A model generated the notes under the pieces. It worked only from the letters and a program-made list of their open reading frames with translations. It ran no database searches and was not told the origin of the DNA. Both the position numbers and the translations under genes were made by a program. Below, in pieces: positions 6,801 to 57,800 of a stretch of DNA of 64,000 nt. The stretch is from assembly GCA_012932295.1 (NCBI GenBank), contig JAAONU010000008.1:35702949-35766948 (forward strand). Reading direction: 5' to 3'. The DNA is from Cyclina sinensis. Taxonomy: Eukaryota > Mollusca > Bivalvia > Venerida > Veneridae. How positions within the stretch are numbered: the stretch's first letter is position 1; each line of letters starts with the position of its first letter.

Positions 6801-9800
6801 AGATTTTAAATTTGGCACAAAGGATTCCTGGGCATGGCCAATTCTGAGCCAGGCGTAATATTTGAACCGTCTTGGACGACTTCAACTACACAATGCTACA
6901 CAACAAATTTCTAGACCCTTGGCCACACAGTTTCAGAGAAGACTTTTTAAGTTCTTCCTATATAACTCAACATAAATCAACTGACCCCCAGAAGGGGCGA
7001 ATTTTGATCCCAGGCACATACTTTGAAAAACTTGAAGAGGATTCACTAGATAACGCTACATACCAAAACTTAAAGCTCTGGGCCTAGTAGTGTCAAAAAA
7101 GATTTTCTAAGTTTTTTCTATTTAACTCAATGTAAAGCAAGTAAACCCCCCACCCCCCTCCAAAACACACACCCCACTGGCAGGGTCAATTTTGAATCTA
7201 GTGAAGTAATTTCAACAATCTTTGTAGAGGCAAACTTAACAATGTTGCAGCTAAGATCTAGCTCTTATGGTTTCTGATGAGAAGATTTTTAAGGATTTTC
7301 CTGTATAAGTCTATGTAAAACATGATCCTTGGAACGGGGCCAATTTTGACCTGGTGGCTGTAATTTGAACGGCTTTGGTCAGTGCTACATGTCAAATATC
7401 TAAGGTCTATGACTTGTGGTTCTGGACAAGAAGACTTTTTAAGTTTTCTTTTTTGGATTCCATAGTCACCAGCAATTTGCATGGTATTCAATTCTTTGAA
7501 CTATTTTGTAAGAATACCTTTGCAGGAACATCCAAGCAAAGTTGCATCAATTTTGATTCAACAGTTAAGGAGATGTTGTTTAACTGAGATGATGAGAAAG
7601 GAACGATGGACAAAGTCTGTTCAGAACACCTCGCCTTGAGCACTTTGTGCTCGGGTGAGCTAAAAATAAACTAGAGTTAAAGTGCTTTGAAGTCAATGAC
7701 TCTAACTGCTAGATCATAATATTTCATGACATTAGGTTAACTTAAGGGCAGTGCTTTACACTACAATTGCTAGGAGTTAAAAGGAGCAATTTTTTAGAAA
7801 AACGATTACAACCTACAATGTGTAGCTGCCTTCCAGCTCACTAGTAAACAAATTTTAACAGGATGTCCATATCACTCTCAATAAACTTTGATTAAGGTTC
7901 TATGATATAAAATACATATTTTTGCCTTTCATATACCTTAAGTTTCTTATCTGAAGAATTTGGTCCATCTCTGTCACCTTCACATACCTTAAGTTTCTTA
8001 TCTGAAGAATTTGGTCCATCTCTGTCACCTTCACATACCTTAAGTTTCTTATCTGAAGAATTTGGTCCTTCTCTGTCACCTTCTGCTGCTTCTTCTTCAT
8101 CTTCTACATTCTGTTCCATCTCTTCTTCTGCATCGGAATCTTCATCCAACAAAGGCAGGAAGCTCAGAGGTCCATCTAGATCAGTCCAGCCAGCAATGTC
8201 AACCTAGACAGGTCAGTGAGCACAGTTTGCTTGAAATGGCTAACATAAATATTAACAAACTAAAAACAATTGTCACATGAATGTTACCTTAAGACCACTA
8301 ATATTAAAACAAACAAGGCAGTCTGAAGGACAGCAAAATCCCCTTCCGCAGCTGACATGAATGTGTACTTCTTGACCTTTAACCAACCATGACCTTGATG
8401 TTGCGCCATACATATTATAAGCGCATAATCTCATGATAGTAATTATTTGTGCCATTTTTTAAAAAATCTTCCATAAATCTGCACATCGTGTCATAGTAGT
8501 GATCATTTGTGCAAAGTAATTAAAAAAACTTTTTGTAAGCCAAGTTAATAAGTTATAGAGCAGACGTGAAATGTGGGTATTTGACCTTTAACTATGACCT
8601 TGTGCCAAGTTATTACAAAAATTTTTCAGTGGTTTAAAAGTTATGGAACGAACACGAAACGTAGACTTTTAACACTTGACTTTTGAGTGTGACCTTCACC
8701 TTGGGGTAGCAACCCAATTATTGTGCTCTGCACATCGTCTCATAATGGTGATCACTTGTGCCAAGTTATTTCAATAAATGTTCAGCGGTTTAAAAGTTAT
8801 GGGGCGGACACGAAATGTAGACTTTTTAACACTTGACCTTTAAGTGTGACCTTGAACTTTGGGGTAGCAAACCAATAATTGCGCTCTGCACATCGTCTCA
8901 TAATGGTGATCACTTGTGTCAACTATTTCAAAAAAATTTCAGCAGTTTAAAAGATATGGAGCAGACACAAAAGTGTTACAGATAGACAGACGGACAGAAT
9001 GACAGACGGAGGCCATTCCTATAATCCCCTCCCCGTTTTGCAGAAGGGGATTAAAAAGTCTCTCTATTTTCATTATACTCATATCAAACAAAACACAAAA
9101 CTGCTATTATAGTCAGAAACACCGCCTATGTCTAATTCATTTTCAAAAATGAAGATGTTCTTGAGAAACTTTCTCATACAAAAAAAAAAACTAGAGCTAT
9201 CACTACATGTGACTAATATCCCGCAAGACTGCTTCAGAATTGAATACTTTGTAAAAGAATTAAAATAGAGTTATGGTTGTGGGCAATTAAATATAGATGT
9301 GGTTCTTGTACATTGCATTTCCTTTCACTGTGCTTGACCACTGTATGAAGTTGCATTGAATTCTAACCATTAGTTTTCAAGTTATGCTCCGGACAAAGAA
9401 AACCAACAAAGGGCAATAACTGTGCAAATAGTGAAGATGGAGTTATGATTCTTGAACAAAACACTTCCTCTCATCCTGCCTGACCATTGTATGAAGTTGT
9501 GCAAATACTGAAGATGGACTTATGACTCTTGTAAAATGCACTTCCTGTCATTGTGCTTGACCAATGGAAGAAGTTGCACTGAATTCCAACTATTAGTTTT
9601 CAAGTTACGCTCTGGACAAGGAAAACCAACAAAAAGCGATAACCGTGCAAATAAAGAAGATAGAATTATAGCTCTTGTACACTGCACTTCCTGTCATTAT
9701 GCTTGATCACTGTATGAAGTTGAATTGAATTCCAAAAATTAGTTTTCAAGTTATGCTCCAGACATGGAAAACCAACAAAGGGCAATAGCTGTGCAAATAG

Positions 9801-12800
9801 TGAAGATGTAGTTATGATCCTTGAACACTGCACTTCCTCTCATTAGTTTTTAAGTTATGCTCTGAACAAGGAAAACCAACAAAGGGCAATAACTGCAAAT
9901 AGTGAAGATGGAATTATGATTTTTGAACATTGCACTTCCTCTCATTATGCTTGACTATTGTATGAAGTTGCAATGAATTCCAACCAGTAGTTATCAAGTT
10001 ATACTCCAGACAAGGAAATTGAAACAGACCACCAGACTAACCGCATGACCGAACAACCAACCACCGGGTGACTCCTATATACCCCAAAACTTCATTTTAG
10101 GGGTATAATAAAATTCCTCTTTTTATTGCCAAATGTAGTTGGGTATATACAATGGAAAAACTTTACCTTCAAGGCACCATCCTCTTTTCTTTCGAAAAAA
10201 TATGGTGGTCCTATTGACGCATCTAGCATTAGTAAAACCTGCCGAGAGGTAAGAAACAGCGGGAATGCATAGTCCTGAACATCCTCCAGGCGACTTGGTA
10301 AAACTTCTTCCTCATGGGCAACATGTTCCCTCAGTAAATCATCAGCATGACTCAATTCTCTGAAATTCTTCTGGACTTCATTAGACAAGACAGCATTTTT
10401 GGTAATAAAGAGCTGGTGTATATGGTCATACTGGACCCCACCCATGTTTTCCTCAGCTGGTTCCTGGTCAGAGCCGATACCACATGCAGCTGCCATGGAA
10501 GAGGTACCAGCTGCTCCTTCTGTAGTATCATCAACTTGCTCATCCTCAGTAACATCTAAAAGACAAATATCATTTAACTACTTCACTTATTTCAACTATT
10601 TGGCCTATATCAACTATTTGGCCTATTTCAACTATTTGGCCTATTTGATCTATTTGGTCTATTTTAACTTTTTGGTCTATTTCAACTATTAGGCATATTT
10701 TAACTACACTGCTCAAATTAATTAAAAGAGCGCCCATATAATCTATAAAATACTATACGCATTGAGTAGATTTATGAATATCTTTTACAGAAATAACAAA
10801 ATCGTTCTTTTTACAAACACAATTCGGCATTTCCATTGCCAACAGGCACATTCCGAAACAGAGAGAATGTCCAGGATATGAACACTATCAATTTACTTTT
10901 GAAATGGTGGTCTTACAGGAGAACAACCAACGTCTGTAAAAGCAGATTCAGGCCTCAAAATGTTTCATAGTCAGTGTCAGTAATGAGTGTATCCCCTCAG
11001 GCATTTAGACTCTCTGCATCATCTGGGCATGCTCCTGATGACACGTCTGATCATATCCTGTGGTATGGCATCCCATTCTGCTACAAGAGCATGAGAAAGC
11101 TCGCGGACATTCTGCACAGGGTTCGGACGTGAAGAAAGTCTACGAGAAAGCATGTCCCAGACATGCTCTTTAGGGTTAAGACTGGAAGACCTCGCTATGA
11201 CCTCAATACCTTCATCATCAAAGAAGTTCCGGACGATTCTTGCAGTGTGTGCTAGAGCATTATCTTCCACTAAACAAGAAGTTTTATCTATTGCTCAAGC
11301 ATATGACCTAACAATTGGTTCTAGGATCTTGTCTCGATATCTCAGGGCCATCAGACTACCTCCTAGAATCATATAAAGGTCTGTGCACCAGTCAATGGAT
11401 ATCCCTGCCCACACCATAAAAGACCCAACGCCAAACCTGTCATATGGAATAATGTTACATTCCGCATACCTCTCCCCTCACCGTAAAAGACCCTCACACG
11501 CCTGTCACAGGTCGAAGCATGGTAGTGGCTCTCATCTGTGAAGAGCACAGATCGCCAGTAGCGCAGTTGCCAAGTGCCGTGTTTCTAAGCGAGCTCTACG
11601 GTGAGCTACGGTCAGAAATGGTCCTGTGGCAGGTCTTCGGCCATCCAAACCATCTTCATAAAGACGATTTCAGACAGTTTGAATGGACACATGAACCCCT
11701 GTAGCATGTTGGAATTCAGTTTCAATGCCAGTAGCAGTACACTGACGATTTCTGAGGGCTCAAATATCGGTCCTGACGAGGTGTTGTAATGCGGTGACGA
11801 CCTTGCCCAGGTATTCTTGTGAATTCTCCAGTCTTCTGATAACGACTCCACAACCTGGCAACAACGCTTCGAGAAATGTCTAGAACGGTGGCCACCTCAC
11901 GTTGCGTAAATCCATTTTTGATCATTTGCACTGCCGAGCACATCAGTAGTTCCTAAATGACGTCGCAGCGAATATTTAGTATGGTGGGCAATATATGCCA
12001 TAACATATTTGTGCTCCTTTAATAAATCTGAGCAGTGTATTTGGCCTATTAAAACTATTTGGCCGATTTCAAACATTCTATATTACAATGTATCTATTTT
12101 TAACATTCATTTAAATTTAATTCTACTCTATGACAGCATACTAAGCTGACCCCAATCTTTTTCTTTATTTAAGCTTCCACAAGAGCATGTGAATTCTCTA
12201 ACGAGTATGATACCAAATATATTTGTATGATATAGTTATGTTAGTCTCAAAGACATGCAAGGTAAAATGACATGAAGTATCAGACATGGTGCCATCTACC
12301 ATATATTCCTGCATATAGGATGTATTCACTTATAAGATGCAACTCTTAAATGGACTGACAATGTAGCTGATTAAAATTAACTTTCTAATAAGATGCATCA
12401 AAATGTTCAAGAGGGTTATCTAAACTTATTTCTCTGTTTTCTTGTCATTCTGACCTAACAAATGTAGAAAGTTGCATGTAAGTTTTATTTACTTTAATAA
12501 TTGATAATGCATGGGACATCTCATATTCCTTCATAAAAAATAAAGTATTTCAACTGCAACTGAAAAGAATGGTAGGGTTGCTAAAAATCATTCTTTAGGG
12601 TGTGTGTATAAGACACAGTCCATTTCTTAAAGCAAAATTCAAGGGAAAAATGTGTCTCTGCATTTACAGTATATGGGCAATAATGAAATTGCTACCACCT
12701 GACAATGATCTTTTTTTATAAAACAAATAGATTTCATAAACTTACGTTCACATTAAGGAATCCTACCTTCTACTAATACAATTTTCAGTAAAATGTTTAT

Positions 12801-15800
12801 TTTTAAAAGTGGTAAGTTATACCTTGTTCCTCATCGGACTCTGTTTCATCTTCCTCCTTATAGTTGAATTCGACACATCGAGGTAACAGTGGAGCATCTG
12901 CCTCTTTAGCCTTGTACCAGTATGAATGGAACTGGCTCCAGAGTCGATAAAGACAGCACGTTGTTTTACCTGTAAAGTACATGTATGCACAATTTTTCAT
13001 TAAAGTGCCAAGGAAATTTAGCCTTAACATTGTCTTTAAAAAGAAAAGTGATACAGAAATATTGTCGGAAGCAACATATTATGTATACATACATGTAATA
13101 TATATATATATATATTACTGAAACAAGAAATGTACTATTCCAACATATTTTATTTCCATTGTCATATCTACAGTTTAATTTGTTTTCACTATAGTCTTAA
13201 ACCATTCACATTAATTTACCTGTCCCACTCCGGCCTAGGAGAAGAATGGGTGCCTTGGATGGCAGATTTATGATTGCATGCTCCAGATCTGTCACTCGGA
13301 ATGGGAAGTCAACTTTTGTCTCGATATTCTGAAGTACATGACTCACTAGGACTGAGGAGAATGTGTAGAACTTTAGGATATGGTATTCAGTGTCATTGGA
13401 GCTGGCAGGAGGGAAAAATCTCTGCATTTCCTGAAAGTAATTTGCAGGTTATGATCTGTATCTGTTCAAATTTATTTAAGTGTGGCTTGATATAATAAGT
13501 CTATAATGGTTTATTAACCAAATTTATATTGTCTGAAGTTTTACCCCTCCTTAAAGTTAAAGTAATATCAGACAAGTACATGTAGTTTACTAGGGAGATA
13601 CAGTACTACACTCTGATTTTCCATAAGAACTGTAAACTTTCTCAGATGAAAGTGGGGTGTGATCCAGTTCAGCCTTGATACATTTGGTGATTATGAGTCC
13701 AATGACTTTAACCAGTACACTGAGACGGCAAGCCTAAAATTGTTGGTACTATTCCTTTTAAATCTGTGGCATGCACCATTCCTTACAATCCAGTTTGGAT
13801 GAAAGTCTTCACTTCTGATCACATCCAAAGATGGAATAATATAGGATGTATGAAAACATCACTAAGTCTTATTGTCGTACAAAATTACAAATCTGTGCTG
13901 ACCACAAGAAACGAAGCAACAGCTGTCTTGCCAATAGACACAACTAGTTTTATGGCCAAATATAAAGAGTATTCAACCACTCGCAGGTAGAGCTCATCAA
14001 GGAGCATGCACCTGTGAAGTTTTTAGGCTGTAGGTGGAAGGTTTTCCATGTTATGGTCAAGGTTAAAGTTTTGTGACAAACAGACAAATGGACAGACAGA
14101 CAGACCTAAAACAAGGGTCATATTTTGCATTAAATTTGGTCAAGAATTACATAGCTTTTTTTCAATGAAGTATTTAAACAATAATCATAGTTGCTTATAA
14201 AAATATATGCATCATTTTAAATATATGCAAAACTGTATTTTTTTTTGCATGCAAGACCTTTACTAAAATGTCAAAGTTAGAAGGGGCAATAATTTACAAT
14301 AAATTCTGCCAAGAGTTATCTTACTTGGAGTTCTGATGTCCCTCAATATCTATAATAAGTTTCAAGTCTATCCCATTAAACATGTTAAAGATAGAGTCCA
14401 ACCTTACTTAAGCAGCCAGCCAAGGGAAACAGTAATTTTGGCTGCTCAAGAAAGGTGACTGCCTATTTAGGGGGTAATGTTGGCTCGTTTTCTTTAGTAC
14501 TAGTGGTTACTTTTAACATAGAATTGTAACATTGTCAATTGTTGTATACAAATGAATCTTTATTAACTTTTAATATGACAATTCAAATTCAAAATAAATA
14601 CATATAGCATCTTGCAATTATTCAAATTCTTTTAGATATTATCACTGACTTTCTAATCGCGACACGAGCGGTCTCAGCTTTACTCCAAGAAAGTAAATAC
14701 ATGTTTCTTAAGTCTTGTCTTAAGTATTAAACGTATGGCTCACTAATGGCATATTTGAAAATTTCCTTGTTATAAGTTTACATTTTATCTCTGAAAGTAA
14801 CAAAACATTCTTAAAAGACAAAAATAATTCTGGTTTGATTTTAAGGCGAATCGCGAAAATTGATTCATTACATCGTTAAGAGTTCTTTCCCTTCCGCGTA
14901 ATCGGGATAATTTGTACAAGAAGGTGTTCTCCTAACAAGCCGAGATATAGAATAAAGCATGGTATTACTTAGCTTCGTTTTCTTTTACACCGTGACAGAT
15001 TTAAATTTAAATTTAATTAAGTAGTATGTTTCTTAGGTGCTTACATTTATTTTAGTTTCTCTTGACTGTTGAAATCAATACCTTTTGTAATCATAAAACA
15101 CACTTCTTAATAAGATCAAAGGTTAATTCGACCGTTTACTGTGAGAGTATATTGTTATTTTTGTAATTAAATAGTTAAAATTGAAACACATTATAATGCG
15201 TAACAAACAGTCGCCGAATTAACACACTCATACTTTAAAGCACTGTGTATTGTCACGTGTTTGCCTTGGGTCTCACACCTTTAGCAGACGAAACGTGACC
15301 GCTAAAGTGGGTCGATTTTTGGCAAATTGGATGCAATTACTGTGGCCGCTGGCCGCAGACGTAAGGTGACCGTTTAATTAACGTGTTATTAAGAAGGATT
15401 TTCGACGGGAGCGTCATGATATGACCGTTGACACCAGGTGACCGCCAATATAAGGTGACCGTTAGGGCAGGTTATACTGTACTATGCCCATCTTTGCATA
15501 AAATTCTTTTATTGGAGAAATTAACTGAAATCTAGAAAATTCTTACTGAATATTATTATGTCTAGAGTGCTTGGACCAACGCTCGGCGTATACCATCGCT
15601 CGGCGTAAATCTATTTTTTCACGGAATTGATATTTTTTCTTAGAAGTGATTTAAAACTCTTCTTTAATTCGAGTTAAGTGTCATTTCGTCTCTCTTTTCA
15701 CGGTTCTCTGAACTTCCAGTATCATCACTTAAACATAGCAGATGGAAGGGGATCCCATTAGATAAAACAGACAAAACGCATTGTTTTCATGTACTTCTGC

Positions 15801-18800
15801 TGTTTGATACGCAATGAATAGAAACAATCTATTCAATACTTTATTCATTTTGTGTTCAAAAAAGGTTCTTTGCATAATTACAAAAGATTTCTTTTTGAAA
15901 GGTCGCCGATCAGGTGATCTACGGTACGCCGAGCATTGGTACAATTTTGTGCAAACCGCACATGTTTTACTCAGGTCTATTTATAGCCTGCCTGTTGTTT
16001 ACATCACAGCTGTTTCACATGGGGAAACTTCATAAGGATTTAGCAAAGTTTACTCTTGAATAGAATTAGTTCATAACATGAAATGAGTAATTTGTTTAGT
16101 CTCTTCAAAGAAATTCCGTTGATTTTATGCCGAGCATTGGTCTGACCACTCTAATTAGGCTACTACAATAGACACACTATGTATGGGAAGCTGCATTCCC
16201 TATCACAGGTCATGTTATGTTGGTGCTTTCTTAAAAAAAACTGTTTTTATAATGACACTATGTGATTTTAACGTGTTTATCTATAGTGTGTAAAGTTTTA
16301 AACGTAACATATCTACTCTGTGTGTACTCAAATATGTTTATTTTATATTTACATAGAAAAGGTGTAGTACTGTAGTTATTTGTATCTGAAACTTGAGCAT
16401 AATATATCATTAATGATTTCTGAGAAATAAACATGATAGTAACTTACACTTTAACCAAGGTTTCTGAGTAAAAAAAGGGCTATAATTTGCATAAAATTTG
16501 GACAAGCGTTATCTAACTTTTTTTTAATGTCCCTGAATGTCCCATAAGTGAAGTATTAAATCAGTAAGCATAGCTGGTTAGTAAGATAGAAGCATTATAG
16601 TAACTTGCACTCAAAACTTTAACCAAGATTTCTAAGTCAAAAAAGGATCATAAATTGCCTAAAATTTGGACAAGTGTTATCTTTTTTTAATGTCCCTGAA
16701 TGTCCCATAAGTGAAGTATTAAATCAGTAAGCATTGCTGGTTAGTAAGATAAAAGCATCATAGTAACTTGCACTCAAAACTTTAACTAAGATTTCTAAGT
16801 CAAAGAAGGGGTCATAATTTGCCTAAAATTTGGACAAGAGTTATCTAACTTGTTTGTTAAATGCCCCTGAAGACAGAGAAGATTTCACTCAGTAAGCATT
16901 GTTGTTTAGTAAAGATGTATGCATCATAGTAACTTTAACCAAAATTTTTAAGTCAAAAAAGGGTCATAATCTGCCTGAACTTTGGTCAAGATTATCTTAC
17001 TTATTTGTTTGATGCCCTGAAAACATTAGAAAAGATTTAAATCAGTAAACATTGCTGGTTAGTTAGATATATGCATGATAGTAACTTGCGCACAAAACTT
17101 TAACCCACGTATGATATCACCTACGTCCAAGCCAGGGTGAGTAGAATACCTCGACTTAGTTCGTACAGTTGAGCTACAAATAGGTAGTTTTGCTTTCAAT
17201 AAATCAAAAAGGCATGGCTGTGACTATGCATTGTGCCAAGTTTACCTGATGAGGTAAGCACTGTGACTAAGTACTGTGCCAAGTTTACCTTGTAAGTTAA
17301 GCTGTGACTAAGTACTGTGCCAAGTTTACCTGATGAGTTAAGCACTGTGACTAAGCACTGTGCCAAGGTTACCTGATGATGCATTTCAAGCTCCTCATCT
17401 GTTATCTCCTCTTCTGCATACAACATCGGGTATCTCTTTCCCACACCCAGATGGAACCTGCTGCAAATCTCCCTTCATACCCCTCAACTTCTTCTGTATG
17501 ATACAAGTCTCTCCCCTTTGATGGGATTTTTTTATTCTCTGCACACATCTATACAACACATAATCACAATCATATTCACAGAAATACATTTTTGGTTAGT
17601 ATGTATAAAGCCTATTATTTAGATAGAAGTATGTGATGGCTTTAGTCATTCAAATAATATATATTACAAGTTTCGCAGCAACCTTACCATTAAATATCTT
17701 ACAACATATTATATTAGATATAAAAATAATATGCATAACTTCAAAGCCTGATGTCTATAAAAGATGGTACATGGTTATACCTTTTCAGGAAATGGTTCAA
17801 CATTGGATGGTGTAGTCAAAGAACTTTTATCAGAGCACTACTTGCAAGCGAGCAGAAAAATGTCTGCCGCTGACATTCATTCCTAGATTTCTAACCAGCT
17901 ATGTCAAATTTTGATCTTAATTTCCATCAGTGAAAAGAAGCACCTGTATATTTTGTCATGATCAAGAACAATTTCCCAGACTCTTATGATCTCAGAGTAG
18001 ATTCTACCACCCCGCACTGGCTGAGTGATCTCCCCTGTTGTAATCTGTAGGCGGCGCTCAGCTGTCTCACTACACCGTGGGGAAAATGCTATAGCCAGTT
18101 CCCATATAATTCTTCTACCTGGAAAGGTGATATAAGTTTTTTTTTTTTTTCAATAAAACAGGTTAAAAATTTATTAATTTGTAAGAAACAAGAACTTCTG
18201 CTGTTTTGCACTCAGAAGCCAAAGAAAAAGAAAAAAAATATAATGATCACAATTTTTAGAATAAAATGAAAGCACTAATCTTTATCTTACATGCGAATAT
18301 ATTCCAGACAATTTAAAAACAATATAAAAAACAATTTAAAAAGTCTTTCAGCATTATTTTTGTTTCCTTTTTTTAAGCAGCTGCAGTTATATTGTACAAT
18401 ACTAGTAAAATACTGTGAAATCATTTAAATTCGCTGGGATGAAATTTCGCGCAAACGGCAAAAATAGTACGTTCGCGCGGTCCTAAATTCGCGCATTTTC
18501 AATTTCAGATTCAATTTTTTTATCAGCATAAAAAGCAGACGACAGCTGCATGACACTGGATCACCACGACGCGTGTATACGTGTCAATTACCGCGGTCCG
18601 CTTGCGAATATACAAACTGACAGGTCCAACTGTTAATTGACGTTAATTGACACAGGTTGTACACAAGTGGGCACAGATTAAAAGATCGATACCGACAGGT
18701 CTTTTATAACCAGTCCCTAATCAATTATGCTAAAAAAACATTGCCGCTTGCAAAAATTACCTTTACTAATAATTATAAGTAAACGCTTCAGACAAGCGTC

Positions 18801-21800: not shown

Positions 21801-24800
21801 TGCTTGGGGCAATAACTGCTTAATAACAGTAAACACAAGAAGATCTGCATGAGCTACAGGAATCACTCAAGGAGGTGTGAAAACACCTGATGGCGATTCG
21901 CTATAATGCATCTTTATTTTACTGTTAATTACATTATGGGACCCTGATAATTGTTCGCTCAATTGCATTTTTCGTTAAATCACATTTCGTTAAATCGCAT
22001 TTTATCTTAATTGAAAAAAGAAGAAAAAATGACAGGACAAATCATTTTTTTCATAGTACACCGTTATTTAGTTGTACTGCGATTAGTAGCAGTGTGATTG
22101 GACTGTAATTAATTCATTTTATTTGAAGGATAAAACTATTGCTGACCTTATTTTGTTCACACACAAAATGTGTTTTGGTTAAAACAATGCCTGCTTAAAA
22201 CAACAATATGATAGTGTTTTCATAAATTTGCTTTACAATGATTGCAACAAATTAAATATGTAAAAATTAAGAATTACTTATCCATACATTTTTCTTTCTC
22301 CAGAACTATGGTCAGTGCAGCATGAATTGGTGTATCTCCATCATACATGGATAAATTTGTTGTGTCAGCTCCTCTTTTTACCAGCTCTGTCAGCACTTTG
22401 AAATGTTCCTCTAAAATTGCACATCTCACAGCCATCTGTCCATCTACAATTTTCAAAACAAAGGAAAATTCTCTATCATTGTAAAACTGCATGTCAATCA
22501 GCTCCAAAAATCAATTTACAAAAAACATCACACAAAAGTATTCATTCTCACAAGGGCTGCATAATATGTCAAGTTCAATAGTTATTTAACTGCTGCATTG
22601 CACATTTATTAGTGTTTAAGGTTAAGTTCATTTACAGTTTATCTACTTTTACTAAGGTCAGACTATATAACCACACATGAACACCTGTAGTTAATGATTT
22701 TAAAAGAAATTCAGGCCATTCAGACATTACCTACTGTCAGTCTCTAAGGATGCTCCATTATTTAGTCCATTCAGACTGTATTTACTGTCAGTCCCTAAGG
22801 ATGCTCCACAATTCAGGCCATACAGACTTTACTTATTGTCAGTCCCTAAGGATGCTCCACAATGCAGGCCATACAGACTTTACTTATTGTCAGTCCCTAA
22901 GGATGCTCCACAATTCAGGCAATACACCCTAAGGATACTCCACAATTCAGGTCATACAGACTTTACTTACTGTCGGTCCAAAAGGATGCTCTACTATTCA
23001 GGCCATACAGACTTTACTTACTGTCAGTCTCTAAGGATGCTCCATTATTTAGTCCATTCAGACTGTATTTACTGTCAGTCCCTAAGGATGCTCCACAATT
23101 CAGGCCATACAGGCTTAACTTATTGTCAGTCCCTAAGGATGCTCCACAATGCAGGCCATACAGACTTTACTTATTGTCAGTCCCTAAGGATGCTCCACAA
23201 TTCAGGCAATACACCCTAAGGATACTCCACAATTCAGGTCATACAGACTTTACTTACTGTCGGTCCAAAAGGATGCTCTACTATTCAGGCCATACAGACT
23301 TTACTTACTGTCGGTCCCTAAGGATGCTCCACTATTCAGGCTACACAGACTTTACTTACTGTCGGTCCCTAAGGATGCTCTACTATTCAGGCCATACAGA
23401 CTTTACTTACTGTCAGTCCCTAAGGATGCTCCACAATGCAGGCTACACAGACTTTACTTACTGTTGGTCCCTAAGGATGCTCCACTATTCAGGCTACACA
23501 GACTTTACTTACTGTCGGTCCCTAGAATGCTCTACTATTCAGGCCATACAGACTTCACTTACTGTTGGTCCCTAAGGATGCTCCACAATTCAGGCCATAA
23601 AGACTTTACTTACTGTCAGGCCCTAAGGATGCTCTACTATTCAGACCATACAGACTTTACTTACTGTCGGTCCCTAAGGATGCTCCACAATTCAGGTCAT
23701 ACAGAGTTTACTTACTGTCGGTCCCCAAGGATGCTCCAAAATTCAGGCCATACAGACTTTACTTACTGTCAGTCCCTAATGATGCTCCACTATTCAGGCT
23801 ACACAGACTTTACTTACTGTCGGTCCCTAAGGATGCTCCACTGTTCAAGAGGTTGGTAACAATCTGCAGTTTCAGCTCTTCTGCAGCCTTCAGTGTTTCC
23901 TCTCTGACTACTGGTACAACAGTCAGGTCAGATGCAAATCCTAGAATCACAATAAAAAAATTCACACCATCCCGGATACCATAATTTTTGCACACTAACT
24001 CAACAAAATGTCTACATCCAAATAACTGAGGAAACTGAGCTCTTTATTAGAGCAACTTGTGTTTCAGTAATAAAATTTTGTTTAAATCAAATGGCAGGCA
24101 GTTTAGCTTTCAAGAGAAAATGAATTCAGGAAATGGCTTGACAAAATGTAATAGTGAAACAGCAGAACAATAACCTGTTGTCCACAAAACCAGTGACTGG
24201 CAATGAAGGTTTGAATATCTGTTTACAGAGTTCTGTGTTCACAAACACATTAACAATTCAAAGCAAACGAAAAAATCAGGATGTTTTCCAGAAAATTCCG
24301 TTTGTACTTTTTACATAAACTTGATGCCCAAGGGCAACAGGTCAAGCCCACAAGATGCCAAAAGGATCAAAAGTTGCGGAACAGCCTTGAAGAGTTGTGT
24401 ATTTGTACCCATGCACTTTTGTTTAATGTCCCTTATCACTGTGTGAAGTTTCAACAAGGCCCATTTAAAAAAATTGAGATATATGTTCTAGAAATTAAAA
24501 CAAGAGGGCCATGATGGCCCTGGATTGCTCATCTGACTACTTTGGCTGTGGGCTGGCTGTTAAGCAAACATAAGAAGCAATATTTCATTTTATAATTGAA
24601 GATATGTAGGTGCCTACAAACCAAACTTACAATATCAGTCAATAAATAAAGGCTCTATGACAGAAAGTAGAAATATCTATTATTAGCTATAGTGACCTCG
24701 ACCTTAACACAGTGACCTCAAACACCACCTATGGGTTGAGGCCCATGCAAGGAACCTATATACTGAATATCAAAGATAATGGTCTATAAATGAAGGCTCT

Positions 24801-27800: not shown

Positions 27801-30800
27801 CACAGCAAGTCTGGTGTCAACAGGTCAACACAAACTCAAGTTATTACGTGAAAACTGAATTTCTTTTTTAAAGCAACAGTGACCTTGACCTTGTTCACAG
27901 ACCCCTGGGTAGCAATGCCAAGTTGCATCTTGATATCAGCTACCAAAATACTAAATTTGGTTTCAATAGGTCTAAGCAAACTAAAGTTATAGAGCAGTAA
28001 CTTAATTTCTTTTTTTAGCAACAGTGACCTTGACCTTGACCACAGATATCTGGGTAGCAATCCCAAGCTGTCTCTTAATATAAGCTACCCATACACCAAG
28101 TTTGGGGTCAATAGACCAAAGCAAACTAAAGTTATTGAGCAGAAACTGAATTTTTATTTTTAGCAACAGTGACCTTGACCTTGATCACAGACACCTGGGT
28201 AGCAATGCCAAGCTGCCCCTTGATATAAGCTACCCATACACCAAGTTTGGGGTCAATAGGTCAAAGCAAACTCAAGTTATTGAGTGGAAACTGAATTTCT
28301 ATTTTTAGCAACAGTGACCTTGACCTTGATCACAGACACCTTGGTAGCAATCCCAAGCTGCCTCTTGATATAAGCTACCCATACACCAAGTTTGGCATCA
28401 ATAGGCCAAAGTAAACTCAAGGTATTGAACGTAAACCAAAAGTTGACGCCCGCCCGCCCACCCGCCGACTTCAGCATTACAATAACCAGGTTTTGTTGAA
28501 AACCTGGTTAAAAATTCCTTTTTCTATGACCATTGTAATCATTAGGCAGGTTGTACATTTGTGAAAGTTTAATGCTACTCTCCACAAGATGCAATTACAA
28601 CATAGATTTTCCAGATAAGAACTTACATACAAACAATGTTATGTGTCACCTTACTGATCTGTGGACTGACAGAACTTTATCAATCTCTTATTAACTTAAT
28701 GTTAGGCAAGATAAAATAACTACATTTTACAGATATTTTTTAGAGGTATTTTTTTACTGATACCTGGATTGAAAGTCTTTCCTAGCCTCTTGACAATTTC
28801 AGACACTGCTTTCTTCATCACTTCCTCATGTTTTCCTCCAGTGTGTGTATGGTTTAACAACATGGTCATCTTCTCATATCCGTCTCTTACAAAACCCTCA
28901 GTAAAATTGGTCATCCCTTGTGAAAACAGGTCATCACAAAATCACAAGTTCTCCTTGGATGTGACTGGGTTCCTGCCTTTTTAAATTGGTTGGTTTCATT
29001 CAGTGGCTGCTTTTTTGATTGGCTGAACTCTCTACTTTTCTGCTGAGTTGCTGGTGGCTTCGAAACATTTTCTGGAGTATAAATCAAAAGCAAAACAATC
29101 ATACAACATAAATGTAAATTTCTGTCACAGGACTGTATGATCAATACCAAACAGCCTCTATGTCATCACTACAATACAACCACTATAATGTTGTTACAAC
29201 ACACCAACTTTTATTTCCTCATTATTAAAGAACCTTCATATAATTACTATCTTAGTCCTGAGTCATTACCATACTTCTTCTATAAAATCACTACAACAAT
29301 ACCTTTATGTTGTCAGCACCATACCACTGTCTATGTAGTCACTACCCCTTTACCCCTAATACCATACTAGATCTATGCTGTTACAACCATAAAACCTTTA
29401 GGTTGTCACTACCACACTACCTCTATGTCATCAAAACTATATTTCATATATGTCATCACTACTGAACCACAGTTATGTTTTCACTGCAACTTTGAGTTGT
29501 CACAATCATACTACCTGTATGTCTCAACTACCATACTATCTCTATGTCATGACTTCCATAGTACCTGTATGATGTCACTACAAAACTGTATGTCATCTCT
29601 ACTATACTACCTCTTTGTTGTCAGTGTAATATGACCTCTGTGCCATCTTTACCATAATACCTGTATGCCATCACTACCACTCTATGTTGTCAGCACCATA
29701 TTACATCCATGTACGAGTATTCACTTCCATGCTATCTCTATGTTGTCACTACCTGCTACCTCTATGCATTCATCACCATACTACCTCAATGTAATCAAAA
29801 CCATATTTCTTCTATGCCTCGATTTCATTTACCTCTATGACATCACTTCCATAAAACCCCTAAGTTCTCACTACCATTCTATGTTATCACAAACACACTA
29901 CCTCTATGTTCTCAATACTTTAATTCATCAGTACCAAACTATCTATTTGTCATCACTGTGATAATATCTGTATGTTGTCACTAAAATACTAGTTGTTGTC
30001 ACTATCATACTACCTTTATACCATGACTACCATACTTTGTCACCTCCGTCAAACCTGTATTTAGTCACTACCATACTGTCTCTATGTCATCTCTACCATT
30101 CTGCCTTTAAATCATTAATTTCCTCACTGTCCTCACTTCCATTTTACCTCTATGACATCAGTATCATACAACCTCTATGTTGTCACTACCACTGTATGTT
30201 GTCACAAACACACTATCCCTGTAAATTGTCACTACCATAGTATCTCTTTATCATCACTTCCATAATACCTGTTTGTTGTCACTATAATACTATATGTCAA
30301 AACAACCACACTACCTCTATATCATCCCTATGTTTGTTGTTACTTCTATTGAACTTGTATGTTGTCACTACCATACTATCTCTTAGTTATCACTTCTAAA
30401 ATACTTTTATAACTCTGATATAATATTTTATGTCATGACTACCATACAATAAATGAAGTCACTACCAAACTATCTCTATATCATGACTACCATACAACCT
30501 CTATGTCATCACTTCCATACAATAAATGCAGTCACTACCATACTATCTCTATATCATGACTACCATACAACCTCTATGTCATCACTTCCATACAATAAAT
30601 GCAGTCACTGCCATACTGTCTCTATATCATGACTACCATACAACCTCTATGTCATGACTACTATACAATAAATGCAGTCTCTACCATACTATCTCTATAT
30701 CATGACTACCAAACAACCTCTGTCATCACTTCCATACAATAAATGCAGTCACTACAATACTTTCTCTATATCATGAATATTATACAACCTCTATGTCATG

Positions 30801-36800: not shown

Positions 36801-39800
36801 GAATGCAAGATTAAGTCTCTAAACATGGAACCAATCATTTTCATTTCTTACCAGGAAAGTAAAACACAAGTTCTCATTTTAATTTAATTGAAGCTAATGT
36901 GACCTATGGAACTCAAGTTCAAGGACGATACTTCTTGCTGCAGCTAGGACTTCCTAAACAAAAACCCAAGGCACTAACTACTGAGACATCAATGGCTATA
37001 TGTTGTTCTGACAATACTGGATACTGACACATCAATGGCTATATTTTGGTCTGACAAATCTACTTACCAAGACATCAATGGCTATTATTTGGTTTAACAA
37101 TTCTGCCTACTGAGAATTCAATGGCAATCTTTTGTTCTTAGAATTCTGACTTCTAAGACATCAGTGGCTATATTTTTATCTGAGACATCAATGGTTACAC
37201 TAATTCTGACTACTACTGAAATATCAATCTTTATATTTTGGTCTGAAAATTCTGATTACTGAGACATCAATGACTATATATTGTTCTGACTTCTAAGACA
37301 TCAATGGCTATATTTTGTCCTGACTTCTGAGACATCAATGTCTGACAATACTGATTGCTGTGATAACAATGTCTATATTAAGTTCCGACAACTCTGACTT
37401 AAATGTATTATATGTAATGTTATCATTGATATGGGCCAGTGGCCATTGTCAATAAGTCATTGTTGTTGTTGACTTCTGAGATACAATACTGACTATTCAG
37501 ATATCAACTGCCATATTTTGATCCGAGAATTCTGACTACTGAAACATCAGTGGCTATACTTCAGTCTGACAATATTGACTATTGCGACATCCATGGCCAT
37601 ATTTTGATCTGACACTCTACTACTTGGGTAATGTGCAGGTAGTGTATAAGTAGTGTACAGGATATCGGCCCCCTATTCCAGAGCATCTTATATATACAGC
37701 TGTGGTTTCAATCCCTTATTCTTAATCCAGAAACATTTTCTGTTCATTACTGTATTTTTTACTATAAAATGTCATCCTTAAAAGGTACAGTTAAGCTGAC
37801 CACAACAATGCTACAATGCTCCACATCTTCACATATACAATAAATACATTGTAACAGCTAGATGCTTAAACAACCAATACTTACACAAACTTTTCGGAAT
37901 CTGTGCACAAACAGTGGCAAGCTCAGTGAGAATTTCTATTTTAACCTTGTCTTCAGTGTGGCTATCAATACCATTGTAAGCATTTACAAATGCCTTCATT
38001 GCTTTATCCATTTCCCCAATGCCTCTTAATGCTTTTCCAACACGTATATGAGCCTGTAAAACAGAATTGCTGGACTTGAAAAACAGGACATGGTACTGAT
38101 TCTGTATCTCGTCATTTGCTTAGCTGGGTACAAAGAACATATTGGAAACTAAATGCTTTCAAAGGCTTTTCATTTCTAAAGAAAGAGTACATGTATCAAG
38201 CTGTAATGACCGAGTAAGTCTTCTTAGCTTCTGAGATATCGTATGCTGATGTACTTGCAGGCAGGCAACTGGTTATCAATTGTATTTGGTTATATAGAAC
38301 AACCTGAATCCAATTCTATAACTAATGCTTAAACAACTGCTCTGTTAGAAATGCAAGACCATGGTGGCCTTACATGACTCACCTGGCATATGGTAACATG
38401 TAAGGACTTCTTTTTACAGTGTGTTAGTTTGATAAGTTAAAAATTGTGTAGTTCAGATTTTATCTTTGAAGTCTCCAAAATAAGGAAGTAGGGTAGTAGG
38501 TGATTTAAACAAGAGGGCCATGATGGCCCTGGATCGCTCACCTGAGTACTTTTCCCGAGGGTCTACCGTTAAGCAAACATCAGATGCAACAATACATTTT
38601 CTAACTGAAGATATTCAAAGATCTCATATTTTAAACATAAAAAATCCGTAAGGGCAGAGGCAATTTCGTGATAACAGGTTATGAGGAGATGTCATTTGTA
38701 GCCATATATTGGAAAAAACCTATTTTTAGCTCCTGTTGCCATTTTGTTCAATGAAGCAGAACCGTTTAAGCAATTTTAAAGCAGGGGTATGTAAGGAACA
38801 TTTCTGTGAAATTTGATGGAAAATTACCTTGCCATTGAGGAGTAGAAGCTGTTTGATTTCTTTTCTACTTTTAGTTTTTACAGCTCTTATGTGCAATGGA
38901 GCAGAATGGTTTGAGCAATTTTAGAAAAGGGCATTATAAGGAACATTTCTGTCAAATTTGGTTTAATATGGCCAAGCAGTTTTGGAGGAGATGTCATTTC
39001 AAGCAAAATATTGACGAAAATCTATTTTTAGCTCTGGTGGCCATTTTGTTCAATGGAGCAGAACCGTTTTAGCAATTTTAATAGAGGGCTATGTAAGGAA
39101 CATTTCTGTGAAATTTGGTGGAAAATCTCCCAACCGTTTAGGAGGAGATGTTGTTTGAATTTTTTTCTATTTTTAGCTTTTGCAGCCCCTATGTGCAATA
39201 GAGCGGAACGGTTTCAGCAATTTTAGGAAAGGGCAATATAAAGAACATTTCTGTAAAGTTTGGTTAAAAATAGCTTTGTGATTCAGGAGGAGATGTCATT
39301 TAAAGTAAAATGTTGACGAGGTAAGACGGACGGATGACAACGGACGACAGACACAGAGTGATCTAAAAAGTTGAATGAGAGATGATAATGAGAACTACTG
39401 AAATACTATACATGAACATTTTCTGATTCAGGACTGGTAAATTAGGATCACAAACAACTCACAACAAGAAATGTTTGTAAAACATAAATGCCCCCCGGCA
39501 GCACCTAATTGCTTGTGGTTGGGCCAAAGCGTTCTCTAGTTATTGATCAGAAACCGTTTTTAGGATCAAGGACCCTGTGGCCTTGACCTTTGACCTAATG
39601 TCCTCAAAATCAATAGGGGTCATTTACTGGTCATGACCAACCAGCATACCAAGTTTGGTGAACCTATGTCAATGCATTCTCTAGTTATTGATTGGAAACC
39701 GTTTTTAGAGTCAAAGTCTCTGTGAGCTTGACCTTTGACCTAATGACCTCAAAATCAATAGGGGGTCATCTACTGGTGATGACCAACCAGCATACCAAGT

Positions 39801-42800
39801 TTGGTGAACCGAGGTCAAAGGGTTCTCTAGTTATTGATCGGAAACCGTTTTTATGATGAAGGTCCCTGTGATCTTGACCTTTGACCTAATGACCTCAAAA
39901 TCAATAGGGGTCATCTACTGGTGATGACCAACCAGTATACCAAGTTTGGTGAACCTAGGTCAAAGCATTCTCTAGTTATTGGTTGGAAACCGTTTCTACC
40001 TACAAGGTCAATGTGACCTTGACCTTTGACCCCTTGACACCAAAATCAATAGGGGTCATCTACTGGTGATGGACAATCATCCTACCAAGTTTGAAGTTCC
40101 TAGGCCTAAGCATTCTTTAGTTATTGGTCGGAAACCATTTGGTCTACAGACCGACGGACCGACCGACAGACAAATGCAAAGCAATATACCCCCACTTCTT
40201 TGAAGAGGGGGCATAATAAACATAGTGTGCTCAAAAGTAACAACCCTTGCATAAATCAATGAAATTTATTTTTCCTACCAATACTTTATACATGTACCTT
40301 GCTTATATTATAGATATTCATTGTTACTATAATTATCTTGTATCTTGAGTTAAATCATAGCAATTTATCATTACTATCATAACACTGCATGTACCTTGTG
40401 TAAATTATAGAAATTTATTGTTACTATATTAACCTTGTAACCTTGAGTAAATCATAAAAATTCACTGTTACAATTTTTATCTAGTAACCTCGCATAAAAG
40501 AAATCAATCATTCAGTTGTACCTTGTGTGAAACACAGAAATTAATCTTAACCATTATTACCTTGTATTCTTGCTTATATTAAAGAAAATTAGCATTTCTA
40601 TCATTACCTTGTACCTTGTCTAAATTACAGATATTTATCATTAACATGATAACCTTATACCTTGCATAAATTATCAAAAATTGTCATTACTTTGTTAACC
40701 TTGTACTGAGCATAAATTATAGAAATTCATCATTACCTTTCTTACTGTTGCTTACTCAGATTTAAGAAATTTATTGTATCTTACTTTGTACCTTGTTTAA
40801 ATTTAAATAATTTATCATTACTATCATGACCTTGTACCCTGTATAAATTAATCATTACCTTATTGTTACCTTGTACGCTGTGTAAATTATAGATATAATT
40901 TACCTGAACCTTGAGTAAATCATAGATATTTTATTGTTGCCTTGTATCTTGGGTAAATTATAGATATTTCACTGTTGCCTTGTATCTTGGGTAAATTATA
41001 GATATTTTATTGTTGCCTTGTATCTTGGGTAAATTATAGATATTTCACTGTTGCCTTGTATCTTGAGTAAATTATAGATATTTCATTGTTGCCTTGTATC
41101 TTGGGTAAATTATAGATATTTCATTGTTGCCTTGTATCGTTAGTAAATTATAGATATTTTATTGTTGCCTTGTATCTTGGGTAAATTATAGATATTTCAC
41201 TGTTGCCTTGTATCGTTAGTAAATTATAGATATTTTATTGTTGCCTTGTATCTTGGGTAAATTATAGATATTTCATTGTTGCCTTGTATCTTGGGTAAAT
41301 TATAGATATTTCATTGTTGCCTTGTATCGTTAGTAAATTATAGATATTTTATTGTTGCCTTGTATCTTGGGTAAATTATAGATATTTCACTGTTGCCTTG
41401 TATCTTGGGTAAATTATAGATATTTCATTGTTGCCTTGTATCGTTAGTAAATTATAGATATTTCATTGTTGCCTTGTATCTTGGGTAAATTATAGATATT
41501 TCACTGTTGCCTTGTATCTTGGGTAAATTATAGATATTTCATTGTTGCCTTGTATCTTGGGTAAATTATAGATATTTCACTGTTGCCTTGTATCTTGGGT
41601 AAATTATAGATATTTCATTGTTGCCTTGTATCTTGGGTAAATTATAGATATTTCATTGTTGCCTTGTATCTTGGGTAAATTATAGATATTTCATTGTTGC
41701 CTTGTATCTTGGGTAAATTATAGATATTTCATAGTTGCCTTGTATCTTGGGTAAATTATAGATATTTCATTGTTGCCTTGTATCTTGAGTAAATTATAGA
41801 TATTTCATTGTTGCCTTGTATCGTTAGTAAATTATAGATATTTCATAGTTGTCTTGTATCTTGGGTAAATTATAGATATTTCATTGTTGCCTTGTATCTT
41901 GAGTAAATCATAGATATTTCATTGTTGCCTTGTATCTTGGGTAAATTATAGATATTTCATTGTTGCCTTGTATCTTGGGTAAATTATAGATATTTCATAG
42001 TTGCCTTGTATCTTGGGTAAATTATAGATATTTCATTGTTGCCTTGTATCGTTAGTAAATTATAGATATTTTATTGTTGCCTTGTATCTTGGGTAAATTA
42101 TAGATATTTCATTGTTGCCTTGTATCTTGGGTAAATTATAGATATTTTATGGTTGCCTTGTATCGTTAGTAAATTATAGATATTTCATTGTTGCCTTGTA
42201 TCTTGGGTAAAGTGTAGACACAATTGTTTTTATTATTACCGTGTACTTTGCATAAATTATAGATATTTTATTATTACCGTGTACCTTGAGTAAATTATAA
42301 ATATTTTATCATTACTGTGTACCTTGAGTAAATTATAAATATTTTATCATTACTGTGTACCTTGAGTAAATTATAGATATATATATTTTATTTGTACTGT
42401 GTACTTTGCATATATTATAGATATTTTGTTATTACCGTGTACTTTGCATAAATTATAGATATTTTATTAATACTGTGTACCTTGAGTAAATTATAGATAT
42501 TTTATCATTGCCGTGTACTTTGCAAAAATTATAGATACTTATGATTACCTTGTACCAGTGACCATCAAATGATACACTCTTCATGGCATCATCGAAGGCT
42601 TGCTCATAAATGTTCAGTTTGAGAAAACCTTCTGCTCTGTTACCATATAGCACAGCAATGTCATGGTTTGTCAATTTTGAACGCACCTGAAACATACAAA
42701 CATCAAATTGATGTCCATTTACAATGTCAACATTACTTGTACATTTGTTTTGAAAGAAAACTTGATAAAATGTTGTAGTTAGATTTTTTTTTCATTCACT

Positions 42801-54800: not shown

Positions 54801-57800
54801 GTAGGCAATACCTTTCCATTCCACATTTCTACTGAGACGCACAAGAACCTGTGGCCAAACCACACTGTCAATGAACCTGAGCTGATTGTAGCAATCATGA
54901 AAATGCTCGCCTGTGAAATAAAATTATTATCATCAAGTTCTCACTGTTACATGCCAACCATATAAATGTATGATCAGCATAATAAATAGTCAATCATTAA
55001 GTCACATGGAGGACTGTGGTTAATGGGTAGTACACTGGACTATACAAGAATAGTATACAAGTATATGCAAGTCACTGTTTCAAACCCTGTTAAAAGTTAA
55101 AATCTACAGTGCAAATTACGACTTCCACCCAGGAGGCAATCACCAACAATTAATTCTAAGTTATAAGAACTTGTTTCAAAATCAAAGTAAACCCTCAAAA
55201 ACGTTCTAAATAAAATTAGAACTGATCTCTGTAACACACTTTGCAATACTAGAGTTTTTCTAAGAGATAATTGTTCCCTTACTTGGAATGTGTTTGCAAT
55301 ACTAGAGTTTTTCTAAGAGATTATAGTTCCCTTACTTGGAATGCATTTGCAATACTAGAGTTTTTCTAAAAGATAACAGTTCTCTTACTTGGAATGTGTT
55401 TCAGGAGCCCAACAGCTTCAATCAGGAAACTGAGCTTCACATCACTTGAGACTTCAGATTTAACATAACCATCCATATAGGCACGGAATGCATCATGGTT
55501 GGAACCCATTGTTAGCAGTACCTTTGCATTCCACCAATGTCCCTGTACAAAACATCATAGAATGTATTGATCAATCATGATACAAATTAATTCACCAGCT
55601 AAGCTAGAATCAGAATGTAAGTTTTTTCTCAATCTTGTCTTTGGTGGACAGTAAATTCCAATACATTCCTTTCCTTTAAACAGGTAATATGAACATTCTT
55701 GTAATTGATTGTGTAAGACATATGAATAAACTCTTAAAAATTTTCTTTCATATAAACCATGACACATTCTAGCTTAGTTTTTACTTTTCAAAGGTAAGAC
55801 CTGGTTTAAGCAGTTTGCAATTTTATCAGAGAGAAACCAGGATAATACAGCACCTTTCAACATATTTTCCAATGAAAAAAAAAAAAACTCGAAACAAGCA
55901 CTATGTTCAAATAAATGCCTGCCCCCTTGGGGGTCTGGCAGGTACAGCTCATCAAAGTGCATGCACCGGTGAAGTTTTGAGGCTGTACGTGGAAGGATTT
56001 TAGTCAAGGTTAATGTTTTTACTATGACAAACAAACTAACAAACAAACACATAGACAGGCCAAAAACAATATACCCCCCCCCCCCCTCCAGGGGAATAAA
56101 AACAAGAAAACAAGAGGAATAATCCAGACCATGCTGAATTTAAAGACCATGAAGTGTCTTTAGAATCTAAATAAAAACACAAAAAATAAAAAGATAACAT
56201 AAAATATTTTCTTAAAAAGTTGTAAATTGTATTTTACTTTATGGTATGCAGAATCACAGGAAATGGCTGCCAAAGCATTAGTGAGTGCTTCAGTGTAGTT
56301 TGTCAGAGTGAAGAACACATTAGCTTGGTTACTGTACACAATGGCTGCTTCTTTGTAAAGCAGCTTGGATCGTTGTGAGATCTTTAATGCTTCCTGATAA
56401 AATTTCAAGGCCTCGGTATGGTTCCCGACTTTAAGTGCTGCATTTCCCTGAGATTTCAGTTCTTCGAGATCTTTACGAAGTTCATCAACTGCACAAGAAG
56501 ATATCAAAAAAATATGAACACATATAAACCTTAAATAAAACAATGCCAAAACATATCTTAAGCATTAGTGAACTATTACATACAGCACAACCTGTCATAA
56601 ACAACCAAAGGAGAGCATTAAAACAGTTGCTTAAACAAGGCAGTCTGAAGGACAGCTATATCCCTTGCTGCAGTAGAACATTGGAATTGATAACAAGTGT
56701 GAAGACAGAAGGTTAGACCTCCCAATATGACAAAGGATAATGATTTTTACGGAAAATGGGCAGCTACATTTGGACCTCACATTTGTAGCAGTTTAAAAGT
56801 TATGGAGCAGACACGAAATGTGGACTTTTTTATATATGACCTTTAAGTGTGACCTTGACCTTGGGAGTAGTGACCTGGTTGTTGTGCTTTGCACATTGTC
56901 TCATAATGGTGATCATTTGTGCCAAGTTATTTAAAAAAACTTTCAAGCAGTTAAAAAGTTATTGAGCAGACACTAAATGTGGACCTTTTTTATATATGAC
57001 CTTAAGTGTGACCTTGAACTTCGTGATAGCGACCTGGTTGTTGCGCTCTGTACATCGTCTCATAATGGTGATTATTTGTGCCAAGTTATTTTAAAAACTT
57101 TCAAGCAGTTTAAAAGTTATTGAGCGGACACTAAATGTAGACATTTTTTATATATGACCTTTAAGTGTGACCTTGACCTTTGGGATAGCAAGCTGGATGT
57201 TGCGCTATGCACATCATCTCATAATGGTGATCATTTGTGCCAAGTTATTTTAAAAACTTTCAAGCAGTTTAATAGTAACAAGCGGACACGAAATGTGGAC
57301 TTTTTTATGAGCTTTAAGTGTGACCTTGGCGGTAGCAACCTGGTTGTTGTGTTCTGCACATATTCTCATAATGGTGATTATTTGTGCCAAGTTATTTTAA
57401 AAACTTTCAAGCAGTTTAATAGTAATGAAGCAGACATGAAATGTAGACTTTTTTATATATTACCTTTAAGTGTGACCTTGACCTTGGGGGTACCGATCTG
57501 GTTTTGTGCTCTGCAAATCGTCTCATAATGGTGATTATTTGTGCCAAGTTATTTTAAAAACTTTCCATGCGTTAAAAAGTTATGGAGCGGACACGAAGTT
57601 TCTGACAGACAGCGCCATTCCTATAATCCCCTCCACGCTACATGGCAGAGGATTAACAAGATGGTCTATTAATGAAGTTAAGATACATGTATTGTTTCCT
57701 CAATTCTGATTCCTTGTTTTTATAACTGCCAGCAAATTCTAACCAATAAATGTGTCAAAAATGTTTTTATACAGTTAGAATGGGTATGGAAAGTCCCTGA

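What the first reader, a model, noticed from the sequence alone, without database searches (positions are those of the whole stretch)
7937..55542. Five exons of one gene carry tandem arrays founded on their own 5' splice junction
At exons 4, 10, 18, 23 and 27 (ends 55389, 42549, 23818, 17373, 7937) the repeat unit contains the last bases of the exon, the GT donor and the first intron bases. Units differ entirely between the five (53, 38-40, 51, 41-43, 51 bp), so these are independent events and not one mobile repeat. Five of 35 donors in one gene is far above what chance placement of minisatellites would give, and no acceptor shows it. Possible causes are replication or repair slippage tied to splicing-linked structures (R-loops ending at donors), or selection for donor multiplication. 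The known tandem-duplication model of intron gain uses AGGT-containing segments and may be related. I know of no description of this pattern.
Basis: partly seen in the sequence, partly recalled or inferred. Interest (0 to 1): 0.88.

Follow-up and report, generated by a model that had tools for sequence, protein, structure and literature searches.

The report
Tandem repeats founded on splice donors
In one TRANK1-like gene of an animal that is likely a mollusc, five introns open with short tandem repeats whose repeated unit includes the splice donor itself; this is likely ordinary repeat birth that would be harmless where the first donor stays intact, and a human gene, CBS, has the same layout.

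Summary
A TRANK1-like gene on the minus strand has 33-34 internal donors by my count. Five (55389, 42549, 23818, 17373, 8039/7988/7937) carry tandem arrays with unrelated units holding the exon end, the GT and the first intron bases. None of its 33 acceptors does. Under uniform founding 0.18 such arrays are expected (P = 3e-7; about 0.02 windows per genome).

The broader claim is weaker. Of 86 homology-defined exons elsewhere in this genome, 0 of 86 donors and 0 of 85 acceptors are spanned; one acceptor-spanning duplication exists in a nearby exon. Whole-genome arrays built on CAGGTAAGT: 25 loci (first 100 of 128 rows), against 10 for the reversed word (all 47 rows), 24 for a shuffled word (first 100 of 119) and 9 for an acceptor word outside one family. 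Two more exon-donor arrays exist (S1P lyase and another gene). The human CBS 31-bp VNTR has the same arrangement.

Best reading: ordinary local tandem duplications that happened to straddle donors, likely tolerated because the first donor stays intact. At exon 10 only 6 of 42 later copies keep GT, which argues against selection for many donors. Why five fell in one gene is unexplained; a donor bias is not excluded.

The parts
55389..55542 (-). exon 4 of the TRANK1-like gene; donor GT at 55388-55387
   Evidence: coding score and donor score; Mactra homolog aligned up to about this end
55240..55401 (-). 53-bp x 3.1 array; unit = last 12-13 exon bases + donor + about 40 intron bases
   Evidence: TRF; units; extent 162 = 3x53+3
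42549..42686 (-). exon 10; donor GT at 42548-42547
   Evidence: junction HWYK|AHIRVG matches Mactra P0121
40293..42549 (-). 38-47 bp array, about 43 copies, founded on the exon 10 donor; only 6 of 42 later copies keep GT
   Evidence: TRF; alignment score 77 vs shuffle maximum 31 of 300; copy table
23818..23940 (-). exon 18; donor GT at 23817-23816
   Evidence: exon end not checked by a close homolog
22708..23847 (-). 51-bp array, about 23 copies; unit = 23-29 exon bases + donor + intron; 16 of 22 later copies keep GT
17373..17548 (-). exon 23; donor GT at 17372-17371; reading frame changes inside this exon
17217..17379 (-). 41-43 bp x 3.8 array; unit = last 6 exon bases + donor + intron
8039..8203 (-). 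exon 27 up to its first donor
   Evidence: homolog P0002 reads KKLK before DPRREITY
7928..8083 (-). 51-bp x 3.1 array; unit = 44 exon bases + 7 intron bases; three in-frame donors at 8039, 7988, 7937
   Evidence: extent 156 = 3x51+3

Best explanation
The five arrays are most likely ordinary minisatellites, each born by a separate local tandem duplication whose segment happened to straddle a splice donor, and likely tolerated because the exon and its first donor stay intact while the extra copies fall in the intron. Shown: five unrelated units, each holding the exon end, the donor and the first intron bases; four of the five run from the exon end into the intron; in the two long arrays later copies decay, including their GT. 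Inferred: the founding step is slippage or microhomology-assisted duplication (the TRF extents leave 3 shared bases at exons 4 and 27), growth is by further slippage or unequal exchange, and splicing uses the exon-proximal donor. Acceptor-spanning duplications would more often add foreign sequence to the mRNA and be removed by selection, which would give the donor/acceptor asymmetry without any donor-specific mutation process. Why five accumulated in this one gene is not explained by this and may be chance or a local bias.
For: Units unrelated and of different length and within-array identity (86-98%), hence separate events, likely of different age. Exon-proximal copy intact, later copies losing GT: 6 of 42 keep it at exon 10, 16 of 22 at exon 18. 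Reading past the first donor meets a stop at exons 4 and 18, and two of the three later donors of exon 23 would shift the frame (ORFs and units), so the first donor is probably the one used there. Elsewhere in the genome: 0 of 86 donors and 0 of 85 acceptors of homology-defined exons are spanned; the donor word is not above a shuffled word among tandem arrays, 25 vs 24 loci, each counted in the first 100 rows. An acceptor-spanning duplication exists (L045: 46 bp x 2.1), so births are not confined to donors. Isolated donor arrays occur in other genes: S1P lyase (L014; exon identified at E = 3.2e-18) and an exon of an unnamed protein, coiled-coil-like by eye (L013). Human precedent: CBS c.1444_1467+7(16_21).
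Against: Within this gene uniform founding predicts 0.18 donor arrays, not 5 (P = 2.8e-7). 5 of 34 here against 0 of 86 elsewhere differs (Fisher P = 0.0015), though the window was picked for it. Seven of eight arrays taken as private start within 300 bp after a donor (simulation P = 5e-5). The reversed word gives only 10 loci for about the same number of single occurrences (9,453 vs 8,843; binomial P = 0.014), and the acceptor word gives 9 loci once one dispersed family is set aside, so a modest donor bias is not excluded. All later copies at exons 4 (2), 23 (3) and 27 (2) still hold GT, and the third donor of exon 23 and both later donors of exon 27 would keep the frame. Use of the first donor is inferred; no transcripts were available.
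Confidence: 0.6

Rival explanations
1. Splice donors, at least in some transcribed genes, are mutational hotspots for tandem duplication, for example through R-loops, paused polymerase or nicks at exon-intron boundaries.
For: Five of eight arrays taken as private in this gene span a donor; seven of eight start within 300 bp after a donor; an array in the dynein locus L073 starts 25-26 bp after a donor; donor word 25 loci vs reversed word 10 and acceptor word 9 outside one family.
Against: 0 of 86 donors in an unselected exon set; shuffled word 24 loci; acceptor-spanning case L045.
Confidence: 0.17
2. The cluster is a chance extreme picked out because many windows were read.
For: The window was selected by the observation; unselected exons show no excess.
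Against: About 0.02 such windows are expected in this genome under uniform founding at this gene's array density; many other genomes would have to have been read.
Confidence: 0.15
3. Selection favours several donors, as backups or for regulated alternative 5' splice sites.
For: Exon 27 keeps three in-frame donors with an open reading frame (17 codons per unit); later copies at exons 4 and 23 keep GT, and at exon 23 the donor core varies less than the rest (0.037 vs 0.101, 3 copies).
Against: 36 of 42 later copies at exon 10 and 6 of 22 at exon 18 lack GT; at exon 10 the donor core varies more than the rest of the unit (0.132 vs 0.077), at exon 18 about the same (0.096 vs 0.119).
Confidence: 0.05
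4. The arrays are a stage of intron gain by tandem duplication of AGGT segments.
For: Some units contain AGGT (exons 10, 23 and 27); a fission-yeast case with repeated 24-bp AGGT segments is reported (PMC4974935 passages).
Against: The duplicated segments are mostly intronic in four of five and lie at existing junctions; exons 4 and 18 lack AGGT at the donor.
Confidence: 0.03

Closest known systems
Human CBS 31-bp VNTR, c.1444_1467+7(16_21), exon 13/intron 13
   Same: unit = 24 last exon bases + donor within the first 7 intron bases, repeated in tandem, so each copy carries a donor (PMC2630376 passages; PMC1395315 Table 4 passage); exon 27 here has 44 + 7
   Different: one array in one gene there; here five unrelated arrays in one gene, four of them with short exon parts and long intron parts; polymorphism untested here
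Internal tandem repeats at exon-intron boundaries in human segmental duplications (De Grassi and Ciccarelli 2009)
   Same: minisatellite expansion at exon-intron boundaries changing gene structure (PMC2812944 passages)
   Different: recent paralogs and novel introns from cryptic sites; no donor-founded class singled out in the passages read
[quoted passage not shown] potato RdRp; fission yeast)
   Same: tandem duplication of segments carrying splice signals (PMC4974935 and PMC2891723 passages)
   Different: those create new introns, in the Rogers model from exonic segments; here existing introns lengthen
USH1C 45-bp VNTR in intron 5
   Same: intronic minisatellite of similar unit length (PMC1895989 passages)
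   Different: not shown in the passages read to include the donor

Membership tests
Donor-spanning VNTR (CBS type) | repeat unit includes last exon bases, donor GT and first intron bases | tested here: met
   for all five; the exon 18 end is the least secure
Donor-spanning VNTR (CBS type) | copy number varies between individuals | not testable with these tools
   one assembly only
Donor-spanning VNTR (CBS type) | copies offer alternative functional donors | not testable with these tools
   no transcripts; donor scores only
Private minisatellite | tandem copies of a 10-100 bp unit | tested here: met
Private minisatellite | unit not dispersed through the genome | not tested
   whole-genome search with the five units did not complete
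Intron gain by tandem duplication (Rogers) | duplicated segment is exonic and carries AGGT | tested here: not met
   units are mostly intronic except at exon 27; exons 4 and 18 read AAGT and CAGT
Intron gain by tandem duplication (Rogers) | creates a new intron | tested here: inconclusive
   intron positions could not be compared between species
Donor-specific mutational hotspot | donors spanned more often than acceptors and random sites genome-wide | tested here: inconclusive
   0/86 vs 0/85 in exons; word test 25 vs 10, 24 and 9 loci

The most novel reading that the evidence does not exclude
Splice donors are birth sites of minisatellites: in some genes of this animal a process coupled to transcription or splicing duplicates the DNA just across the exon-intron border again and again, seeding a new array at one donor after another and lengthening introns from their 5' end.
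Probability: 0.15. Interest if true: 0.75.

Novelty: new member of a known kind. Interest (0 to 1): 0.4.

Why it matters
If these are ordinary births, the gene is a clean example of how donor-spanning duplications can pass unseen while acceptor-spanning ones would be purged, and of how introns can lengthen from their 5' end. If a donor bias were confirmed genome-wide, it would link splicing or transcription to the birth of tandem repeats and offer a source of intron growth and alternative donors.

Tried and rejected
Coverage comparison: about 21-30% of 660 random 40-bp pieces in this window resemble DNA within 350 bp, against 5 of 33 donors. I rejected this as the null because long arrays inflate coverage while the founding footprint is one unit; the unit-footprint null was used instead.

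An 8-letter donor word in triplets gave 1,039 matches against 556 for the reversed word. I set this aside because single arrays dominate: every listed row of the reversed word came from one locus on contig 1.

The 30 loci fetched hold seven or eight distinct arrays (L018 and L019 share a unit, lie 5 kb apart and may be one). Seven views were printed: two sit on clear exon donors (L013, L014); L009, L019, L021, L022 and L033 show no exon at their edge by eye, and the scan gave them at most a weak donor score (L033, 4.5). L018 was only scanned (1.8). Two further listed loci were not fetched. This set was selected for donor words and cannot give a rate.

Low-scoring TRF rows and the dispersed 102-430 bp repeats of the window were left out of the count of 8; the copies at 9421-9947 were taken as part of the dispersed repeats; pieces at 36978-37614, 40293-42537 and 29507-31507 were each merged into one array, the last with an assumed 25-bp unit (TRF also gives 73 and 98). 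L007 gave a donor-like score of 13.7 that I judged false on reading it. The L079 array 3330-3414 showed no convincing splice site. SNF loci include paralogs; 85 distinct donor 60-mers among 86. The dynein exons used are 56 of 95 listed matches, the SNF exons 30 of 103. Near the S1P lyase array two upstream exons were seen in 5.2 kb, without donor arrays.

Microhomology: an exact-run script gave other remainders because of substitutions; only the TRF extents at exons 4 and 27 (remainder 3) are used, and this is weak.

PDB search with one helicase exon found nothing. Literature: 7 searches answered; in their listings I saw no paper describing donor-founded arrays as a class. Lievers 2001 on the CBS VNTR was seen only as a reference.
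Full report
WHAT IS THERE. The window is part of contig 17 of an unnamed 903-Mb genome. The minus strand carries a TRANK1-like gene: TPR and UvrD-helicase matches over Pfam's cut-off and a weak ankyrin match, and the joined C-terminal exons match 'TPR and ankyrin repeat-containing protein 1-like' of Gigantopelta at 55% identity over the whole query, with Mya and Potamilus proteins next. The host is therefore likely a mollusc. Homologs cover the C-terminal part queried and the N-terminal part up to about exon 16. Most neighbouring exons agree in phase; exon 10 with the ORF near 38604 (then dropped) and exon 18 with the acceptor first taken for exon 19 do not.

THE OBSERVATION. All five arrays exist and all five contain the donor in their unit. 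At exons 4, 18 and 23 the array begins 6-29 bases before the exon end and runs into the intron. At exon 10 the founder has decayed, but the donor region aligns strongly to the array. At exon 27 the unit is 44 exon plus 7 intron bases, giving three in-frame donors. A scan that asks, for each array, whether an exon ends in its first unit finds four of them. The units are visibly unrelated. No acceptor of this gene is affected (0 of 33).

IS IT MORE THAN CHANCE? In this gene, yes. Counting eight robust minisatellites taken as private and the footprint of one unit each, 0.18 donor-spanning arrays are expected and five are seen (P = 2.8e-7); by the Poisson tail about 0.02 of the 14,100 windows of this size in the genome would reach five if all were like this one. 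Seven of eight arrays start within 300 bp after a donor (P = 5e-5). The window was, however, chosen because of the pattern.

IS IT A GENOME-WIDE PREFERENCE? Three tests. (1) Exons defined by homology, without regard to repeats: 30 SNF-family exons and 56 dynein exons (DNA). 0 of 86 donors and 0 of 85 acceptors are spanned; one dynein array starts 25-26 bp after a donor. 5 of 34 here against 0 of 86 gives P = 0.0015, so the gene is unusual within its genome. (2) In those same loci a different SNF exon carries a 46-bp duplication across its acceptor (L045), so acceptors are not exempt. (3) Whole-genome count of tandem triplets of a strong donor word: 128 matches, 25 loci in the first 100 rows. 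Controls: reversed word, 47 matches, 10 loci, all listed; shuffled word, 119 matches, 24 loci in the first 100 rows, its own reversed word giving 198 matches. The donor word and its reversal are about equally common singly (9,453 vs 8,843). An acceptor word gives 62 matches (its reversal 18), 32 of them one family by span, leaving 9 loci. The donor word is thus above one control and the acceptor word, and level with another control; a modest bias is neither shown nor excluded. Single counts of the shuffled and acceptor words were not obtained; Markov estimates are 10,178-12,920 and 12,419-16,669.

OTHER CASES. Two arrays found through the donor word sit on clear exon donors: a 50-bp x 6 array at an S1P lyase exon and a 21-bp x 17 array at an exon of an unnamed protein.

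HOW IT LIKELY WORKS. Shown: the exon-proximal copy keeps exon and donor; copies extend into the intron in four of five; in the long arrays later copies decay. At exon 10 only 6 of 42 keep GT, and at exon 18 16 of 22; in the short arrays (exons 4, 23, 27) all later copies, 7 in total, keep it. Several donors are thus not being preserved in general. Inferred: a local duplication of a segment straddling the donor leaves exon plus first donor unchanged, so it would be nearly neutral, and it then grows like any minisatellite. Reading past the first donor meets a stop at exons 4 and 18, and the second and fourth donors of exon 23 would shift the frame, so the first donor is probably used there; the third donor of exon 23 (84 bases on) and both later donors of exon 27 would keep the frame. 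A duplication across an acceptor would usually add sequence to the mRNA and be lost; this alone could give a donor/acceptor asymmetry. It does not explain why founding units in this gene favour donors over intron interiors; that remains open.

WHAT IS KNOWN. The human CBS VNTR c.1444_1467+7(16_21) is a 31-bp unit of 24 exon and 7 intron bases, 16-21 copies (PMC2630376, passages read; PMC1395315 lists it as exon 13-intron 13). Repeats at exon-intron boundaries in human paralogs are described in PMC2812944 (passages). Intron gain by tandem duplication is discussed in PMC4974935 and PMC2891723 (passages). None of these passages describes several donor-founded arrays in one gene.

VERDICT. A real and unusual cluster of a known kind of repeat.

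Noticed in passing
window 17395-17548, minus: Exon 23 changes reading frame: the part matching KKSHQRGETCIIQKKLRG and the part matching VGKRYPMLYAEEE are in different frames, though homologs have them in a row. An assembly indel or a real frameshift.
   Followed up: partly
window, eight arrays taken as private: Seven of eight begin within 300 bp downstream of a donor, including two (29.5-31.5 kb and 37.0-37.6 kb) that do not contain it (simulation P = 5e-5): a possible bias to the 5' end of introns.
   Followed up: partly
L045:2705-2801, minus: A 46-bp x 2.1 duplication spans the acceptor of an SNF-like exon, with TTCCTAG|G in each copy.
   Followed up: yes
L014:1489-1789, minus (G000:C1:25512251-): A 50-bp x 6 array founded on the donor of an S1P lyase exon.
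   Followed up: yes
G000 contigs 1-6, 10, 11, 13, 14, 17, 19 and 40: A dispersed set of 85-bp triplets of TTTTGCAGG, often as + and - pairs 2.5-6 kb apart, looks like inverted terminal arrays of a transposon.
   Followed up: no
window 11019-11896, minus: ORFs in the intron before exon 27 read like a broken Tc1/mariner-type transposase (recognised by eye, no search run).
   Followed up: no
window 8311-8477: A dispersed repeat of about 167 bp: 39 other places at 88-94% identity are listed for it (40 of 1,674 first-look candidates were scored).
   Followed up: no
G000:C12:35110141 and C12:46343794: The same donor-word array unit occurs in opposite orientation 11 Mb apart on one contig, so the two are probably copies of each other.
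   Followed up: no
G000:C4:41249843-41249986: A 45-bp array unit holds an acceptor-like TTTCCAG and a donor-like CAG|GTAAGT 19 bases apart, like a repeated micro-exon.
   Followed up: no
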